Below, piece by piece: positions 56,359 to 62,337 of a stretch of 64,000 nt of DNA. A model generated the notes under the pieces. The model worked only from the letters and a program-made list of their open reading frames with translations. It had not been told where the DNA came from and did not search any database. Position numbers and translations under genes: made by a program. This DNA comes from Pseudoxanthomonas gei. Its GTDB lineage: Bacteria; Pseudomonadota; Gammaproteobacteria; Xanthomonadales; Xanthomonadaceae. Within the stretch, counting starts at the first letter, position 1; the number at the start of each line of letters is the position of its first letter. Location: contig NZ_QOVG01000001.1 in assembly GCF_010119615.1 (NCBI RefSeq), positions 434,001 through 498,000 of the forward strand. Direction: 5' to 3'.

Positions 56359-57204
56359 ATGTGTCCCAGTAAGGTCGCCGATGGCGATGAAAGAGGTTGG
56401 ATCATTCCCATCGGCGGCGCCGAGAAAAAGGAAGACAACCCGCGGATCCTCAAGCGTTTCCTTGACCTCTGCGGCGGCCGGGAGGCCGAGATCGTGGTCA
56501 TCCCCACCGCCAGCCAGCTGGCCGACACCGGCAGCCGCTACGAAACCATATTCGGGGACCTGGGTGCCAGCCGGGTCGATGTGATGGACTTCGATACCCG
56601 CCGCGACTGCCACGAGCCCAACCGCCTGGCTCGCATCGAAGCAGCCACTGGCATCTTCTTCACCGGCGGCAACCAGTTGCGCCTGTCGACGATCCTGGGC
56701 GGCACGCCGGCGGCAAAACTCATTCGCGAACGCAACGCCGCCGGCGTCACCGTGGGCGGGACCAGCGCCGGCGCCAGCATCCTCAGCGAGCACATGATCG
56801 CGTTCGGCAAGGAAGGTGCCTCGCCGCAGGCCGACAGCGTGCGCCTGGCACCGGGCCTGGGCCTGACCAACCGCTTCGTGATCGACCAGCATTTCCGCGA
56901 ACGCGACCGCCTTGGCCGCCTGGTCGCCGCACTGGCCTACAACCCCTTCGCGATCGGCATCGGCCTGGACGAGGACACCGCCGCCTTCATCGGCCCGGAC
57001 AACACCCTGGAGGTCGAAGGCAGCGGCGCGGTCACCGTGGTCGATGCCGACGGCCTGACGTTCTCATCCATGGCCCAGGTCAGCGAGAACGACCCGGTCT
57101 GCCTGCTCGGGCTGACCGTGCACATCCTGGTCGCGGGTGCGACTTTCAACCTGCATACGCGCAAGGCGTCCGCGGGTTCGCTGGGCAATTCCAAATCTGC
57201 CTGA
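56359..57204 (+). CDS. cphB: Cyanophycinase
   Basis: S51-family serine peptidase that cleaves cyanophycin (Arg-Asp polymer) to beta-Asp-Arg dipeptides. 281 residues from the ATG at 56359, with AGGAG 10 nt upstream. The nucleophile is Ser136 in VGGTSAGASI. Family stretches IPIGGAEKKEDNPRILKRF, FTGGNQLRLST and FVIDQHFRERDRLGRL are complete, and no signal peptide is visible, so the enzyme is intracellular. It is 46 nt upstream of cphA, so synthesis and breakdown genes are probably co-transcribed. Confidence 0.94.
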   Translation: MCPSKVADGDERGWIIPIGGAEKKEDNPRILKRFLDLCGGREAEIVVIPTASQLADTGSRYETIFGDLGASRVDVMDFDTRRDCHEPNRLARIEAATGIFFTGGNQLRLSTILGGTPAAKLIRERNAAGVTVGGTSAGASILSEHMIAFGKEGASPQADSVRLAPGLGLTNRFVIDQHFRERDRLGRLVAALAYNPFAIGIGLDEDTAAFIGPDNTLEVEGSGAVTVVDADGLTFSSMAQVSENDPVCLLGLTVHILVAGATFNLHTRKASAGSLGNSKSA

Positions 57205-57250
57205 TGGGCATCCTTCATTCCCGTACCACTTCCTGATCAAGAGGCAAGGC

Positions 57251-60040
57251 ATGCGCATCCTCGAACGCTCCGTCTACGTTGGCCCCTCGCAATACGCGCA
57301 CTTCCCGGTCATCCGGCTGGAGCTGGACCTGCAGGAACTGGAGGCCTGGCCGACCGGGAAACTGGGCACGGGTTTCGTGGATGCGCTGGTGGCCGCCCTG
57401 CCCGGGTTGGCCGGACACGGCTGTTCCTATCGCGAAGCCGGCGGCTTCATCCGCCGCATGCGCGAAGGAGAAGGCACCTGGCTGGGCCACGTGCTGGAGC
57501 ACGTCGCCATCGAACTGCAGAACGTCGCGGGCGAGGACGTCACCTTCGGCCGCACCCGCAGCGTCGGCGACGACCGCCCGGGCGTGTACACCGTGGTCTA
57601 CGAATATGCGCAGAAAGAGGAAGGCATCGCCGCCGGCGAACTCGCGATCAAGCTGCTTTCCTCGCTGCTGCCCCTGGAACTGCGGCCCAAGGGCAGCGTG
57701 CCCGCCGACTGGGACTGGGACAGCGCCCGCGACGACTTCATCCGCTATGCGCAGCGTCGGGCGCTGGGTCCGTCCACCTCCTCGCTGGTCCGCGCCGCCG
57801 AGGAACGCGGCATCCCGTGGCTGCGGCTGAACCAGCAATCGCTGATCCAGCTTGGCCATGGCAAGTACCAGCAGCGCATCCAGGCCACCGTCACCGGCAA
57901 GACCCCGCACATCTCGGTGGAGCTGGCCAGCGACAAGGAGGAAACCAACAAGATCCTCGGCCTGCTGGGCCTGCCGGTGCCGCGCCAGGAACTGGTCAAC
58001 GACGCGGCCAGCGCGCTGCGCGCCGCGCGCAAGCTGGGCGGCACCGTGGTCACCAAGCCCTACAACGGCAACCATGGCCGCGGCATCACCATCAACATTT
58101 CCGGCGACGACGAGATCCGCGAGGGTTTCGCCGCCGCCCGCGAGCATTCGCGCTCGGTCATCGTGGAAACCTATATCGGCGGCGACGACCATCGCCTGCT
58201 GGTGGTCAATGGCGAACTGATCGCCGCCACCAAGCGCACGCCCGGCCACGTGGTCGGCGACGGCAAGAGCGACATCATCGAGCTGGTCGACCAGGTCAAT
58301 TCAGACCCGCGCCGCGGCGTCGGCCACGAAAAGGTGCTGACCCGTCTGGAGCTCGACGCGCAGGCCGACCTGATGCTGGAACGCGTCGGCTACAACCATT
58401 TCTCGGTGCCCAAGGAAGGCGAAGTCGTCTACCTCCGCTCCACCGCCAACCTGTCCACCGGCGGCACCGCGACCGACGTCACCGACATCATCCATCCCGA
58501 CAACCGCGACATGGCGGTGCGCGCCGTGCGCGCGATCGGCCTGGACGTGGGCGGCGTGGATTTCATCTCGCTCAACATCGCCGAGAGCTACAAGAGCATC
58601 GGCGGCGGCATCTGCGAGATCAACGCCGCGCCCGGCTTCCGCATGCACGTGGCGCCCAGCGAGGGCACCCCGCGCGACGCCGCCGGCCCGGTCATCGACA
58701 TGCTGTTCCCGCCAGGCACGCCCACCCGCGTGCCGATCGCCGCCATCACCGGCACCAACGGCAAGACCACCACTGCGCGCATGCTGGCCCACATCACCAA
58801 GATGGCCGGCTACACACCCGGCCTCACCACCACCGATGGCGTCTACATCGACGGCCAGCGCACGGTGGAAGGCGACATGACCGGCCCGGTGTCGGCGCGC
58901 ATGGTGCTGTCCGATCCGCAGATCGACATGGCCATCCTGGAAACCGCGCGCGGCGGCCTGCTGCGTTCGGGCATGGGCGTGCCGGAGGTGGATGTGGGCG
59001 CGGTGTTGAACGTGGCGTCCGACCACCTCGGCCTGAAGGGCATCGACACCCTGGAGCAGCTGGCCGAGATCAAGCGCATCGTGGTGGAAGTGGCGCGCGA
59101 ATGCGCGGTGCTCAACGCCGACGACCCCAACGTGCTGAAGATGTCGGCCTATACCGACGCCAAGGTGATCTGCTACGTCACCCTGAACCCGTCGCACACG
59201 CTGGTACGCGAGCACATCCGCGCCGGCGGCCGCGCCTGCGCCCTGGAAGCCGGCGTCAACGGCCACATGATCACCCTGTACGACAAGGGCAGCCACATCC
59301 CGCTGATGTGGACCCACCTGATTCCCGCCACCCTGGAAGGCCGCGCCCTGCACAACGTGCAGAACGCGATGGTCGCCGCGGCCATGGCGTTCTCGCTGGG
59401 AGTCAAGCTGGACGCCATCCGCCAGGGCCTGCGCACCTTCGACACCACCTTCTTCCAGGCCCCCGGCCGCATGAACGTCTACAACGAGCATCCGTTCAAG
59501 GTGCTGATGGACTACGGCCACAACGCCCATGCGGTCGGCATGATGGCCGACCTGGCCCAGCGCCTGGACGTGCCCGGCCGTCGCATCGTGGTGCTGACCG
59601 GCCCGGGTGACCGCCGCGACGAGGACCTGCGCGCGATCGCCGATGCGGTCGCCGGCAAGTTCGACCACTACATCGTCCGCCGCGACGATTCGCTGCGCGG
59701 CCGCGATGGTGACGAGGTGCCGCGGATCATCGCCAAGGCCCTGCTTTCGGCAGGCGTGGAAGAGGCGGCCCTGTCGGTCATTCCGGACGAGCAGGAATCG
59801 GTCACCGCCGCACTGCGCATGGGCGAGCCCGGCGACCTGATCCTGGTCTTCGCCGATGCCTTGACGCGCACCTGGAAGCAGATCACCAAATTCCAGCCGG
59901 ACGGGGAAATGGTCAAGGCTTCCCCACGGATCGAGCTGCCCTCCCTGGAAACTTCAGTGGACGACATCCCGTTGGCGGAGATGGAAGGCGTGATCCGCGA
60001 GGAACGCGGCCTGGTGTTCGAACGGGAAGAGAGCGATTGA
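57251..60040 (+). CDS. cphA: Cyanophycin synthetase
   Basis: 929 residues. Adds aspartate and then arginine to a growing cyanophycin chain using ATP. The N-terminal domain (about 1-160) is followed by an ATP-grasp domain (about 210-480; VVTKPYNGNHGRGITINIS, ICEINAAPGFRMH) and a Mur-ligase domain (about 490-890) with P-loop ITGTNGKTTTARML near 500 and ILETARGGLLRSGMG. The start is the ATG at 57251 with GAGGCAAGG before it. The stop overlaps the downstream Mur-ligase gene by 4 nt. It works with cphB in nitrogen storage. Confidence 0.96.
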   Translation: MRILERSVYVGPSQYAHFPVIRLELDLQELEAWPTGKLGTGFVDALVAALPGLAGHGCSYREAGGFIRRMREGEGTWLGHVLEHVAIELQNVAGEDVTFGRTRSVGDDRPGVYTVVYEYAQKEEGIAAGELAIKLLSSLLPLELRPKGSVPADWDWDSARDDFIRYAQRRALGPSTSSLVRAAEERGIPWLRLNQQSLIQLGHGKYQQRIQATVTGKTPHISVELASDKEETNKILGLLGLPVPRQELVNDAASALRAARKLGGTVVTKPYNGNHGRGITINISGDDEIREGFAAAREHSRSVIVETYIGGDDHRLLVVNGELIAATKRTPGHVVGDGKSDIIELVDQVNSDPRRGVGHEKVLTRLELDAQADLMLERVGYNHFSVPKEGEVVYLRSTANLSTGGTATDVTDIIHPDNRDMAVRAVRAIGLDVGGVDFISLNIAESYKSIGGGICEINAAPGFRMHVAPSEGTPRDAAGPVIDMLFPPGTPTRVPIAAITGTNGKTTTARMLAHITKMAGYTPGLTTTDGVYIDGQRTVEGDMTGPVSARMVLSDPQIDMAILETARGGLLRSGMGVPEVDVGAVLNVASDHLGLKGIDTLEQLAEIKRIVVEVARECAVLNADDPNVLKMSAYTDAKVICYVTLNPSHTLVREHIRAGGRACALEAGVNGHMITLYDKGSHIPLMWTHLIPATLEGRALHNVQNAMVAAAMAFSLGVKLDAIRQGLRTFDTTFFQAPGRMNVYNEHPFKVLMDYGHNAHAVGMMADLAQRLDVPGRRIVVLTGPGDRRDEDLRAIADAVAGKFDHYIVRRDDSLRGRDGDEVPRIIAKALLSAGVEEAALSVIPDEQESVTAALRMGEPGDLILVFADALTRTWKQITKFQPDGEMVKASPRIELPSLETSVDDIPLAEMEGVIREERGLVFEREESD

Positions 60041-62337
60041 CTTCCGTGCTCCCGGAACCCTTTCAGGACTCACGCCGGCTGACCGGCAGCAACCTGTATT
60101 TCGACGGTCCCGGCGCGGCCCTGGAGACCGCGCGCGGACTACATTTCGACGACGCCACGCTGTCGGCCTGGACGCGGAACATCGAAGCGGCGCGCACGGC
60201 GCTGGGCTGGCCGGAAACCGAAACGGTATTGCGCCGGCATGACTCCGGCGTCTCGCTGGCGTTCACTGCGCCTGCCGACCAGCTCTATACCGCCACCGAA
60301 GTCAACGAGTGGGCCTGGTGGGCCGCTCTTGACGTTCCCTTCTCCCACCGGGAGAAGGTGGCCGAAGGCCGGATGAGGGAGGGAGCTCGGGGATCCACCA
60401 CTACACCCCGGAGGAAGCTTCCTTTCGACGCAGAGACTCAAGACTTCATCCGCGAGCTGAGAAAGAACTCTACGGAACCCGAACAGCTGATCTGGTTCTT
60501 CCTGCGCGACCGCCGCCTGCATGGACAAAAATTTCGCAGGCAAAAATCACTTGGCCCGTACGTGCTCGACTTTTATTGCCACGAACTCAAACTGGCCATC
60601 GAACTGGATGGCGCCCAGCATAATGAGCCCGACAAGCTGGTTCTCGATGCCAAGCGTGATGCCTTTACTGCAAGCCAGGGAATAGCCACGCTGCGGTATT
60701 GGAACCACGATGTCCTGGCAAGCACGGAATTGGTTCTTGAAGACATCTGGAATCAGGTGTATGCGCGCGCCTCGGATGACACTGGCGGTGGTAAGTCCAT
60801 GCCCTCATCCGCCCTGCGGGCACCTTCTCCCGAGGGGAGAAGGAAGCAACCGCCAGCGCGCTTCCACGCCCCCGGCCACGCTGCCACCTGGGATGAAGAA
60901 TCCGCGCTGCAGACCCTGCGCGCCGTGGCCAGGGCCGAAGCGCGCCCTGCCCTGATCACGCTGATGCGGGCCGCCCGGTCCCATCACCTGCCTTTCCTGG
61001 CCGACGACGACGAAGTCACCCTGGGCGAGGGCGAAGGCGGCCGCACCTGGTTCGTCGACGAGCTACCCACGCCCGACGGCGTGCCGTGGGAACAATTGCA
61101 CGCCATCCCCACCGCGCTGGTCACCGGCTCCAACGGCAAGACCACTACCGTGCGCCTGCTCGCCGCCATGACCCGCGCGCACGGCTGGCGCACCGCGCAC
61201 AGCTGCACCGACGGGGTCTTTTTCGACGGACTTGCGCTTGAGGCAGGCGACTTTTCCGGCCCTACCGGCGCGCGCACCGCGCTGCGGCAAGGCCAGGCGC
61301 AGGCGGCGATCCTGGAAACCGCACGCGGCGGCATGCTGCGACGCGGCCTGGCGGTCGCCCATGCCAACGCGGCCATAGTCACCAACATCGCGCCGGATCA
61401 TTTCGGCGAATACGGTATCCACGACCTGGACGACCTGGCCAGGGTGAAGCTGGTGGTGGCGCGGGCGATCGATCAAGACGGGCTGCTGGCGCTCAATGCG
61501 GACGATCCGGTGCTGGTCCGGCAGTCCGCGGCGCTGGGCTGCCCGCAAGGATGGTTCGCGCTGGATTTCGATCATCCGCTGCTGCAGGCCGCACGTGCCG
61601 CCGGCCGGCCGACCAGCGGGCTGCGCGATGGCCGCCTGCTGCTGCAACTGGCCGATGATGCCCACGACCTGGGCGAAGTCGCGGCCATGCCGCTGACCCT
61701 CGGCGGCCGCGCCATCTACAACATCGCCAACATCGCCGGCGCCGCATTGACGGCGGCGGCGCTGGGCATCCCGTCCGGCACCATCGCCGCGGTGCTGGCG
61801 CGGTTCGGCCGCGACCAGGCCGACAATCCCGGACGCCTGCAGCATTGGCGCTTTGGCCAGCTGGAAGTGTTCGTCGACTACGCCCACAACCCCGACGGCC
61901 TGCGCGGGCTGCTGCACGCGGTCGCCGCGGACAGGCGCAGCGGCAGGCTGGCCATGATCCTGGGCCACGCCGGCAACCGCGAGGATGCCGACCTGCGCGC
62001 CGTGGCCACCACAGCTGCGAGCGCGCGACCCGAACTGGTGGTGTTGAAAGATATTGCCGGCTACGAGCGCGGGCGTGCCGCGGGCGAGGTGGCTTCGATC
62101 ATGCGCGCGCAGCTGCTGGAGGATGGCGTGCCCGCCGACGCGATCAGCACCTGCCTGGACGAAGTCGAAGCCACGCGCATTCCGCTGTCCTGGGCGCGCG
62201 ATGGCGACCTGCTGGTCCTGCCGATCCATGAACTCGATGCACGCGAGCAGGTCACCAACCTGCTCGATGCCATGGCCGCTGCAGGCTGGCGCGCAGGCGA
62301 TGCGCTGCCGCCCATCACGCCGGCCCCGCCCCTGTAG
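60037..62337 (+). CDS. Second cyanophycin-synthetase-like Mur ligase, interrupted in frame by a DUF559 element
   Basis: 766 residues from a TTG overlapping cphA. Residues 1-100 and about 270-766 form a CphA-like Mur-ligase protein without ATP-grasp domain: P-loop ALVTGSNGKTTTVRLLAAM near 360, ILETARGGMLRRGLAV, IVTNIAPDHFGEYG and FVDYAHNPDGLRG. Residues about 101-269 come from an inserted element and contain a DUF559 domain (129-242; VLDFYCHELKLAIELDGAQH). Removing it leaves about 598 residues, a normal size. The reading frame is open throughout, so a fusion protein may be made; whether it is active is unknown. The stop codon is provided by a GTAG REP. Confidence 0.85.
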   Translation: MTSVLPEPFQDSRRLTGSNLYFDGPGAALETARGLHFDDATLSAWTRNIEAARTALGWPETETVLRRHDSGVSLAFTAPADQLYTATEVNEWAWWAALDVPFSHREKVAEGRMREGARGSTTTPRRKLPFDAETQDFIRELRKNSTEPEQLIWFFLRDRRLHGQKFRRQKSLGPYVLDFYCHELKLAIELDGAQHNEPDKLVLDAKRDAFTASQGIATLRYWNHDVLASTELVLEDIWNQVYARASDDTGGGKSMPSSALRAPSPEGRRKQPPARFHAPGHAATWDEESALQTLRAVARAEARPALITLMRAARSHHLPFLADDDEVTLGEGEGGRTWFVDELPTPDGVPWEQLHAIPTALVTGSNGKTTTVRLLAAMTRAHGWRTAHSCTDGVFFDGLALEAGDFSGPTGARTALRQGQAQAAILETARGGMLRRGLAVAHANAAIVTNIAPDHFGEYGIHDLDDLARVKLVVARAIDQDGLLALNADDPVLVRQSAALGCPQGWFALDFDHPLLQAARAAGRPTSGLRDGRLLLQLADDAHDLGEVAAMPLTLGGRAIYNIANIAGAALTAAALGIPSGTIAAVLARFGRDQADNPGRLQHWRFGQLEVFVDYAHNPDGLRGLLHAVAADRRSGRLAMILGHAGNREDADLRAVATTAASARPELVVLKDIAGYERGRAAGEVASIMRAQLLEDGVPADAISTCLDEVEATRIPLSWARDGDLLVLPIHELDAREQVTNLLDAMAAAGWRAGDALPPITPAPPL
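60338..60843 (+). mobile_element. 506-bp inverted-repeat element carrying a DUF559 (Vsr/restriction-like) domain
   Basis: Terminal inverted repeats of 42 bp (60338-60379 and 60802-60843) match at 37 positions and share CCTTCTCCC, GGGAGAAGGTG and GGATGAGGG. Each arm is itself a palindrome. The inner part encodes a DUF559 protein that could also start alone at the ATG at 60373 (MREGARGSTTTPRRKLPFDA). Key residues are the Asp in VLDFYC and the Glu and Asp in LAIELDGAQH, fitting a PD-(D/E)XK nuclease core. No transposase is present. It is inserted in the same direction and frame as the host gene. Confidence 0.85.

What the first reader, a model, noticed from the sequence alone, without database searches (positions are those of the whole stretch)
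60338..60843. DUF559 nuclease-like element inserted in frame inside a Mur-ligase gene
Seen directly: a 506-bp block bounded by 42-bp inverted repeats (37/42 identical) interrupts a cyanophycin-synthetase-like gene, yet the 766-codon frame stays open across it, adding about 168 residues that include a complete DUF559 domain. From general knowledge, DUF559 proteins are Vsr/restriction-endonuclease-like, and xanthomonad genomes carry many DUF559 genes. Inference: DUF559 genes may travel as small transposase-less units whose palindromic ends are read-through compatible, a homing-like or MITE-borne lifestyle. The host protein would become a nuclease-ligase chimera or be inactivated. I know of no description of such an in-frame carrier.
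Basis: partly seen in the sequence, partly recalled or inferred. Interest (0 to 1): 0.78.

Follow-up and report, generated by a model that had tools for sequence, protein, structure and literature searches.

The report
Nuclease genes bounded by matching palindromes
A small nuclease-like gene (DUF559) sits, still in reading frame, inside a bacterial enzyme gene, bounded by mirror-image palindromes; most of the relatives examined in Proteobacteria carry matching palindromes too, which points to a widespread partnership of nuclease and palindrome for which I found no description in the papers I could search.

Summary
Observation confirmed: a 506-bp block with 42-nt inverted ends (37/42) carries an intact DUF559 domain in frame inside a Mur-ligase gene next to cphA (Pseudoxanthomonas). 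It is not a one-off. In the genus 64 of 80 DUF559 loci examined, and across Pseudomonadota 44 of 69, have their own matching inverted ends (controls: 2 of 2579 and 0 of 1006 positions; 5 of 724 other genes). The ends share one grammar, diverge together with the nuclease, and also occur as ~110-bp inverted doublets (REPIN-like) and singly. None of 34 RAYT loci examined has them. The fold resembles the EDxHD homing endonuclease I-Bth0305I. The Mur-ligase insert is old: same site, in frame, in four Pseudoxanthomonas, a Luteimonas and a Lysobacter bin, under purifying selection, absent with an apparent scar in sister species. In-frame insertion recurs at about ten host sites (HsdM, HsdS, MmeI, type ISP, MetRS and others). 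Copies are mostly vertical (71 of 79 close pairs share both flanks), so recent travel of the unit is not supported, apart from one homing-like case. Best reading: a REP-associated nuclease system analogous to REP/RAYT but with an unrelated enzyme. Action on the ends is inferred, not shown.

The parts
60037..62337 (+). Host gene: Mur-ligase family (cyanophycin-synthetase-like) ORF carrying the insert, 766 codons
   Evidence: uninterrupted orthologues, alignment
60338..60843 (+). The DUF559 unit (506 bp, 168 codons in frame)
60338..60379 (+). Left end: outer hairpin 60338-60358, second hairpin 60360-60370, tail GGATGAGGG 60371-60379
60802..60843 (-). Right end, inverted copy: tail 60802-60810, inner hairpin 60811-60821, outer hairpin 60823-60843
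60373..60375 (+). ATG inside the left tail, in the DUF559 frame (possible own start, inferred)
   Evidence: sequence; frame analysis
60439..60756 (+). DUF559 domain (EDxHD/Vsr-like nuclease fold); conserved E149, D178, E189, D191, H195, D204, R207 of the 766-aa frame
61120..61533 (+). Mur_ligase_M domain of the host
61831..62217 (+). Mur_ligase_C domain of the host
57137..60040 (+). Neighbour gene: cyanophycin synthetase (Cyanophycin_syn N-terminal domain), overlaps the host ORF by 4 nt

Best explanation
The block is one member of a widespread genetic unit: a DUF559 nuclease gene (EDxHD/Vsr-like fold) bounded by a matching inverted pair of REP-like palindromes. It works like the REP/REPIN-RAYT system with a different enzyme. 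Shown: the units, their matching ends, divergence of ends together with nuclease, doublets and single ends scattered in the same genomes, conserved putative active-site residues, purifying selection, mainly vertical inheritance, and in-frame residence in diverse host genes. Inferred: the nuclease recognises its own hairpin ends (as single strand or cruciform) and cuts there; repair then copies doublets, rarely the whole unit, into new places. Because the ends have stop-free frames, some copies survive inside genes as an in-frame insertion that the host protein tolerates, as in this Mur ligase.
For: Matching inverted ends at 64 of 80 genus loci vs 2 of 2579 control positions, and at 44 of 69 phylum loci vs 0 of 1006; 5 of 724 other genes in the same stretches. 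Ends are matched pairs: left and right ends taken from different loci reach the cut-off in 16.5% (genus) and 310 of 4692 (phylum). Protein distance tracks end distance: Mantel 0.39, n 65, 0 of 2000 permutations; 0.42 for 31 representatives, 0 of 2000. RAYTs have other ends: 0 of 34 examined match, whereas 63 of 65 DUF559 loci match another DUF559 locus. Of 18 close neighbours in the part of the type-A list that was entered, 15 are doublets with tails inward, 14 of them spanning 109-112 bp. Type-B ends beyond the unit's own go with type-B units: median 10 vs 0 copies, p 1.2e-4 (types assigned by me, not corrected for kinship). Profile and fold resemble the homing endonuclease I-Bth0305I, 3r3p. 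In-frame hosts. Conversion-like transfer between two paralogues in one genome.
Against: No cleavage or movement was observed. 41 of 149 loci (16 of 80 and 25 of 69) lack a flanking pair at the cut-off, some near contig ends. Close copies are almost always at orthologous sites (71 of 79 pairs). Type-A ends occur without a type-A unit (19 of 24 such genomes) and the link is weak (p 0.012 by rank, 0.085 by presence); G005 has no DUF559 match but 8 type-A copies. Hetero-doublets joining a type-A and a type-B end exist, so matching is not strict. 11 of 108 units have the tail outside. No target-site duplication seen. In Foldseek only 3hrl passes E 1e-3; two mitoribosomal chains rank above 3r3p. Congruent divergence of ends and gene would also follow from joint inheritance without any interaction.
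Confidence: 0.6

Rival explanations
1. DUF559 is a passenger: the palindromes are a REP family moved by another enzyme (RAYT or other transposase), and the nuclease gene hitch-hikes.
For: The ends look REP-like and occur as doublets; most genomes of the genus also have Y1_Tnp genes (35 of 38).
Against: 0 of 34 examined RAYT loci carry such ends, 25 of 34 carry an inverted pair of their own, many GTAG-like; G018, one contig, has two DUF559 units with paired ends but no Y1_Tnp match; among genes of the fetched stretches DUF559 is by far the most often bounded so (5 of 724 other genes pass, of them 3 with ends of this type).
Confidence: 0.15
2. Old domestic fusion: the DUF559-ligase protein is kept because the cell uses the chimera; the ends are relics.
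For: Same site and frame in six genomes of three genera; dN/dS of the insert 0.12-0.25; host topology only marginally disfavoured by the insert (p-AU 0.057), so common descent is not excluded.
Against: Absence with an apparent scar in sisters, the ligase frame intact (G033, G034); the ends are kept; the same kind of insert sits at about ten unrelated host sites.
Confidence: 0.15
3. The hairpins serve the gene itself: terminators or mRNA stabilisers flanking a small DNA-repair gene, not mobility signals.
For: The hairpins are strong; DUF559 proteins can act on DNA in the cell (VsrA of Caulobacter, PMC12907096, passages).
Against: Inverted and matched as a pair, present singly and as doublets elsewhere, and inside reading frames; no T-run follows the window's ends.
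Confidence: 0.07

Closest known systems
REP/REPIN - RAYT (TnpA-REP) system
   Same: Nuclease gene bounded by inverted palindromes matched to it; doublets and single palindromes scattered in the genome; single-copy, mainly vertical (PMC8049555, PMC3733652, PMC3686654: passages seen).
   Different: Enzyme is an EDxHD/Vsr-like nuclease, not an HUH Y1 tyrosine enzyme; the window's ends have no GTAG tag but an outer hairpin and a GGATGAGGG tail; units also reside in frame inside genes.
EDxHD homing endonucleases (I-Bth0305I, PDB 3r3p)
   Same: Profile and fold resemblance; insertion at the same place of the same gene in different taxa; one conversion-like case.
   Different: No intron or intein found around the window's copy; bounded by palindromes; close copies mostly vertical.
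Rickettsia palindromic elements (RPE)
   Same: Palindromic elements inserted in frame in many unrelated genes (review PMC10969869, passages).
   Different: RPEs are about 150 bp; the units here carry a nuclease gene and are found in several phyla.
Vsr mismatch endonuclease; Caulobacter VsrA (DUF559)
   Same: Weak fold match to E. coli Vsr (Foldseek E about 2e-2); VsrA contains DUF559 and is reported to cause the SOS response of a methylase mutant (PMC12907096, passages).
   Different: That paper's main text holds the word start 'palindrom' 0 times.

Membership tests
REP/RAYT | HUH Y1 tyrosine nuclease (PF01797) | tested here: not met
   Window protein matches DUF559, not Y1_Tnp
REP/RAYT | Gene bounded by matched inverted palindromes | tested here: met
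REP/RAYT | GTAG/GGAG tag at the palindrome | tested here: not met
   No GTAG or GGAG foot in the window's ends, tail GGATGAGGG; 0 of 34 RAYT arms match DUF559 ends. Ends of other loci were not scanned for the tag.
REP/RAYT | REPIN doublets of the same ends elsewhere in the genome | tested here: met
   15 inward of 18 close neighbours in the part of the type-A list that was entered
EDxHD homing endonuclease | Fold and conserved residues | tested here: met
   3r3p: profile E 1.7e-5, Foldseek E 1.6e-3, probability 1.0, rank 4; invariant E, D, E, D and near-invariant H, D in 65 sequences. Which of them are the EDxHD set is my assignment.
EDxHD homing endonuclease | Lies in a self-splicing intron or intein | tested here: not met
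   No Rfam match up to E 1 in 59800-61400, no intein domain among the Pfam hits
EDxHD homing endonuclease | Cuts the empty allele and is copied into it | not testable with these tools
   Only indirect: L280/L283 synonymous identity peak over the insert
MITE / transposon | Terminal inverted repeats | tested here: met
MITE / transposon | Target-site duplication | tested here: inconclusive
   None visible by eye against empty orthologues, which are too diverged at the junction
Intein | Splicing domain | tested here: not met
   Pfam scan at E 1e-3, no such domain

The most novel reading that the evidence does not exclude
DUF559 proteins are the mobilising nucleases of a further superfamily of REP/REPIN palindromes, beside the GTAG and CGTC ones, that runs through several bacterial phyla: an analogue of REP/RAYT built independently on a Vsr/EDxHD homing-endonuclease fold, whose ends are read-through compatible so that nuclease genes persist, and sometimes home, in frame inside working genes, even an essential one.
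Probability: 0.5. Interest if true: 0.92.

Novelty: new variant of a known kind. Interest (0 to 1): 0.82.

Why it matters
DUF559 is a common 'unknown function' family and its palindromes are common unexplained repeats in these genomes; linking the two gives both a testable job. It would show that a REP-like system arose on a second, unrelated nuclease, and that mobile nuclease genes can live in frame inside functioning enzymes without splicing. It also offers a natural experiment: empty, scarred and occupied versions of one gene in sister species.

Tried and rejected
Rejected readings. (1) One-off curiosity. (2) RAYT-driven repeats: (34 of more than 100 Y1_Tnp places were examined, windows of 500 bp). 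(3) Intein or group I/II intron: no domain, no Rfam match. (4) Recently mobile unit: one search gave 75 of 84 close pairs with both flanks shared; two loci had been entered twice, and the corrected count is 71 of 79, 5 with one flank (three of these have a missing flank), 3 with none (G202/G202, G275/G275, G134/G202). (5) Plasmid or phage traffic: the window's DUF559 finds 44 of 72,556 plasmid records (some chromosome-sized) and 2 of 50,697 phage records, all below 60% identity. (6) Known defence gene: only weak partial PADLOC matches.

Led nowhere or stayed open. AU test of insert against host history: p 0.057, not decisive. A careful tree of 196 DUF559 domains did not finish; the quick one has few supported forks: the label 'inside a gene' (20 rows) needs 11 changes, but its rows were partly chosen by similarity to the window. 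One-sided fusions (SpoU, EpmA, CbiG, MurB) may be neighbours with their own starts: the single MurB of G245 has an ATG after the DUF559 part, so only two-sided cases are relied on. The ATG in the left tail is not general. One of the four occupied Pseudoxanthomonas rows shows a TAG inside the match (G025); its ORF of 773 aa reaches query residue 758, so the stop is at the gene's end.

Dropped rows. Genus test: 80 of 85 places; left out were G034:C89 and G013:C361 (near contig ends) and three weak matches (G007, G026:C6:1216932, G018:C1:2139055). Phylum test: 69 loci chosen by me from the cut list (29 returned as loci, 40 fetched); 74 of 80 loci entered, 4 at contig edges not scored; its 12 of 16 for Pseudomonadota includes three loci already counted in the genus. 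Searches list only part of their matches; the counts per genome are complete. One search used the whole lists of G000 and G024 and chosen parts of G020 and G033.

Literature. Nine searches: DUF559 (14 papers), REPIN+RAYT (18), REP+Vsr+endonuclease (0), six end sequences (0), homing endonuclease+EDxHD (11), palindromic element+in-frame+Rickettsia+selfish (5), PF04480 (1), fractured genes/homing endonuclease/VSP (42, 15 listed), GIY-YIG/palindromic/inverted repeats/REP (28, 12 listed). None of the titles, abstract starts or passages seen describes DUF559 with palindromic ends. No paper was read whole. Most subscription papers are not held; I-Bth0305I's own paper (Taylor 2011) was seen only as a reference.

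Full report
What is there. Inside it lies a 506-bp block, 60338-60843, bounded by 42-nt arms that are inverted copies at 37 of 42 positions. The frame stays open; the block adds 168 codons with a DUF559 domain (E 1.5e-30) between the ligase's N-terminal part and its middle domain. Each arm is an outer hairpin, a second smaller hairpin (less sure in the right arm) and a purine tail (GGATGAGGG) that points inward.

History of this insert. Of 81 genomes searched, 75 had some match to the 766-aa query, many only to DUF559 or to cphA. Four genomes of the genus match over the whole length, insert included (G000, G026, G025, G035). A scan of named genomes added a Luteimonas (L266) and a Lysobacter bin (L267) with the insert in frame at the same place and with inverted ends (scores 19.5 and 37). 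Uninterrupted orthologues are common (11 used). In G033, sister of an occupied species, the gene keeps most of the left end's hairpins in frame and nothing else of the unit; G034, sister of the window's gene, keeps a decayed version of the same length; G003 has a junction of the same length. Over 15 pairs of the six occupied genes, dN/dS of the insert is 0.12-0.25 and of the host 0.17-0.33, and dS of the insert is higher than that of the host in each pair. So the insert is old, its protein is under purifying selection, and it has been lost more than once, or gained more than once: the insert's own tree disfavours the host's history only marginally (p-AU 0.057). No target-site duplication is visible.

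Not a single case. The genus has 85 DUF559 places in 34 of 38 genomes. For 80 of them I compared the 350 bp on either side: 64 have an inverted pair scoring 20 or more, against 2 of 2579 control positions in the same stretches. Across the phylum 86 of 249 genomes have DUF559; 44 of 69 loci examined pass, against 0 of 1006 positions. A fairer control, other genes called in the same stretches by a simple rule, gives 5 of 724, and 2 of 292 small genes. Three of those five have ends of this same kind: two lie around purA beside a DUF559 unit, whose own end probably serves as one arm, and one around sucD; one is a GIY-YIG nuclease gene with a different palindrome; one is a small lipoprotein-like gene (names other than GIY-YIG are my reading). 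Outside Pseudomonadota, 22 of 54 loci pass, control 2 of 1057 (crude grouping by record title).

Grammar and matching. Printed side by side, the ends share one plan: hairpin, linker (sometimes a second hairpin), purine-rich tail. In 83 of 108 units the tail is inside, in 11 outside, 14 are unclear. Sequences differ between loci, but the two ends of one locus match: exchanging right ends between loci brings the pass rate down from 64 of 80 to 16.5%, and from 44 of 69 to 310 of 4692. DUF559 distance and end distance go together (Mantel 0.39, 65 loci; 0.42 for 31 representatives; 0 of 2000 permutations each). This is what matching of enzyme and site would give; joint inheritance alone would also give some of it.

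Relation to REP and RAYT. Single ends and doublets are scattered through the genomes. Of close neighbours (under 200 bp) in the part of the type-A list that I entered, 15 face inward, 2 outward, 1 the same way; 14 of the 15 span 109-112 bp. Two doublet insertions are visible against relatives without them (L090 vs L113, L143 vs L117). Type-B ends beyond the unit's own are present in 15 of 17 genomes with a type-B unit and 7 of 21 without (p 7.5e-4; median 10 vs 0, p 1.2e-4); for type A the link is weaker (p 0.012 by rank, 0.085 by presence). Unit types were assigned by me, and none of this is corrected for kinship. The four genomes without any DUF559 match (G005, G016, G006, G021) hold 8, 2, 1 and 0 type-A and 1, 0, 0 and 0 type-B ends. 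RAYT genes are also in these genomes (35 of 38), but 0 of 34 examined RAYT loci carry DUF559-type ends, while 25 of 34 have inverted pairs of their own. G018, a one-contig genome, has two DUF559 units with paired ends and no Y1_Tnp match. Close DUF559 relatives share both flanks in 71 of 79 pairs (one search said 75 of 84 with two loci entered twice): the unit is mainly inherited vertically, as is reported for RAYTs (PMC8049555, passages). So it works like REP/RAYT but fails two defining features (enzyme family, GTAG tag) and is not filed as a member.

The enzyme. An AlphaFold2 model from 65 aligned window and locus sequences has mean pLDDT 90. By profile the solved relatives are 3hrl (a Neisseria DUF559-like protein, E 6.8e-40) and 3r3p, the catalytic domain of the homing endonuclease I-Bth0305I (E 1.7e-5). 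By fold only 3hrl passes E 1e-3; two mitoribosomal chains (1.2e-3, 1.3e-3) and 3r3p (1.6e-3) come next, PvuRts1I and Vsr follow weakly. The acidic and histidine residues are kept in 97-100% of 80 genus domains. A review describes EDxHD as a homing-endonuclease family (PMC3943268, passages), and one genome paper already places a DUF559 gene in it (PMC9403480, passages).

In-frame carriers. In 40 of 108 units the DUF559 frame is open through both ends. Two-sided, in-frame residence with host domains or host sequence on both sides was found in: this Mur ligase; MmeI (L128); an L,D-transpeptidase (L203); HsdM at one place in three bins or genomes (L179, L274, L277), at another in two (L268, L269), and within the methylase domain of a third kind (L285); HsdS (L275; L272 is one-sided); type ISP enzymes (L280, L283); methionyl-tRNA synthetase (L282); and a DUF1156 protein (L291, weaker). 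Pfam was run on L280 but not on L283; that places are the same is read from the junctions. In the genome of L282 the interrupted gene is the only full-length match to the MetRS family among nine; the other eight are partial and I take them for related synthetases, so the host enzyme very probably works; the genome is a draft bin of unstated completeness. Two Thiomargarita paralogues are identical at 90-95% of third positions of same-residue codons over the insert, at 79% just upstream and at 33-86% elsewhere: what homing with co-conversion could leave. Two HsdS genes share 84% in DUF559 but 31% over 213 host residues after it.

Mechanism. Shown: anatomy, matching, conservation, distribution, in-frame survival. 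Inferred: the nuclease recognises its hairpins and cuts; repair or replication copies doublets more often and whole units rarely; in genes, only copies whose frame is open survive. I put 0.6 on this reading, 0.15 on a passenger role, 0.15 on a used chimera, 0.07 on a purely regulatory role of the hairpins.

Novelty. Nothing seen in nine literature searches (listed under tried and rejected) describes DUF559 with palindromic ends; the library lacks most subscription papers. In-frame palindromic elements are known from Rickettsia, REP/RAYT pairs and EDxHD homing enzymes are known; the combination, and its spread, is to my knowledge not. I call it a new variant of a known kind.

Noticed in passing
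L363-L368 (G001:C42:29414-30163, G029:C1:1850519-1851293, G030:C7:10721-11455, G017:C4:1588605-1589325, G020:C74:57442-58228, G029:C3:193147-193803): Six 650-790-bp blocks between inward type-B ends hold no recognised DUF559 but a long imperfect palindrome (similar to its own reverse complement), mutually similar, at three different loci; likely non-autonomous relatives using the same ends. Pfam was run on L363 only.
   Followed up: partly
L216:1505-1831 (-): A GIY-YIG nuclease gene (Pfam E 3.7e-12) is bounded by a matched inverted palindrome of another kind (core GGATCAAGTCCGG): perhaps a second nuclease-palindrome pairing.
   Followed up: partly
L370 (G020:C22 about 128392) and L143:4694-4811: Hetero-doublets joining one type-A and one type-B end; matching of ends is therefore not strict.
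   Followed up: no
L090:10466-10569: A doublet of about 100 bp inside what looks like a YfiH-like coding stretch (my reading, no family search); the length difference from L113, 102 against 9 bases, is a multiple of three.
   Followed up: no
L003 / L123 (G000:C33:205485) and L002 / L110 (G000:C46:133108): The same genome carries two further DUF559 units with two other end types.
   Followed up: yes
L268, L269, L272, L274, L275, L277, L280, L283, L285, L128, L179: Among in-frame carriers, DNA-methyltransferase and restriction genes are frequent; whether by choice of site, by traffic of these genes or by search bias is open.
   Followed up: partly
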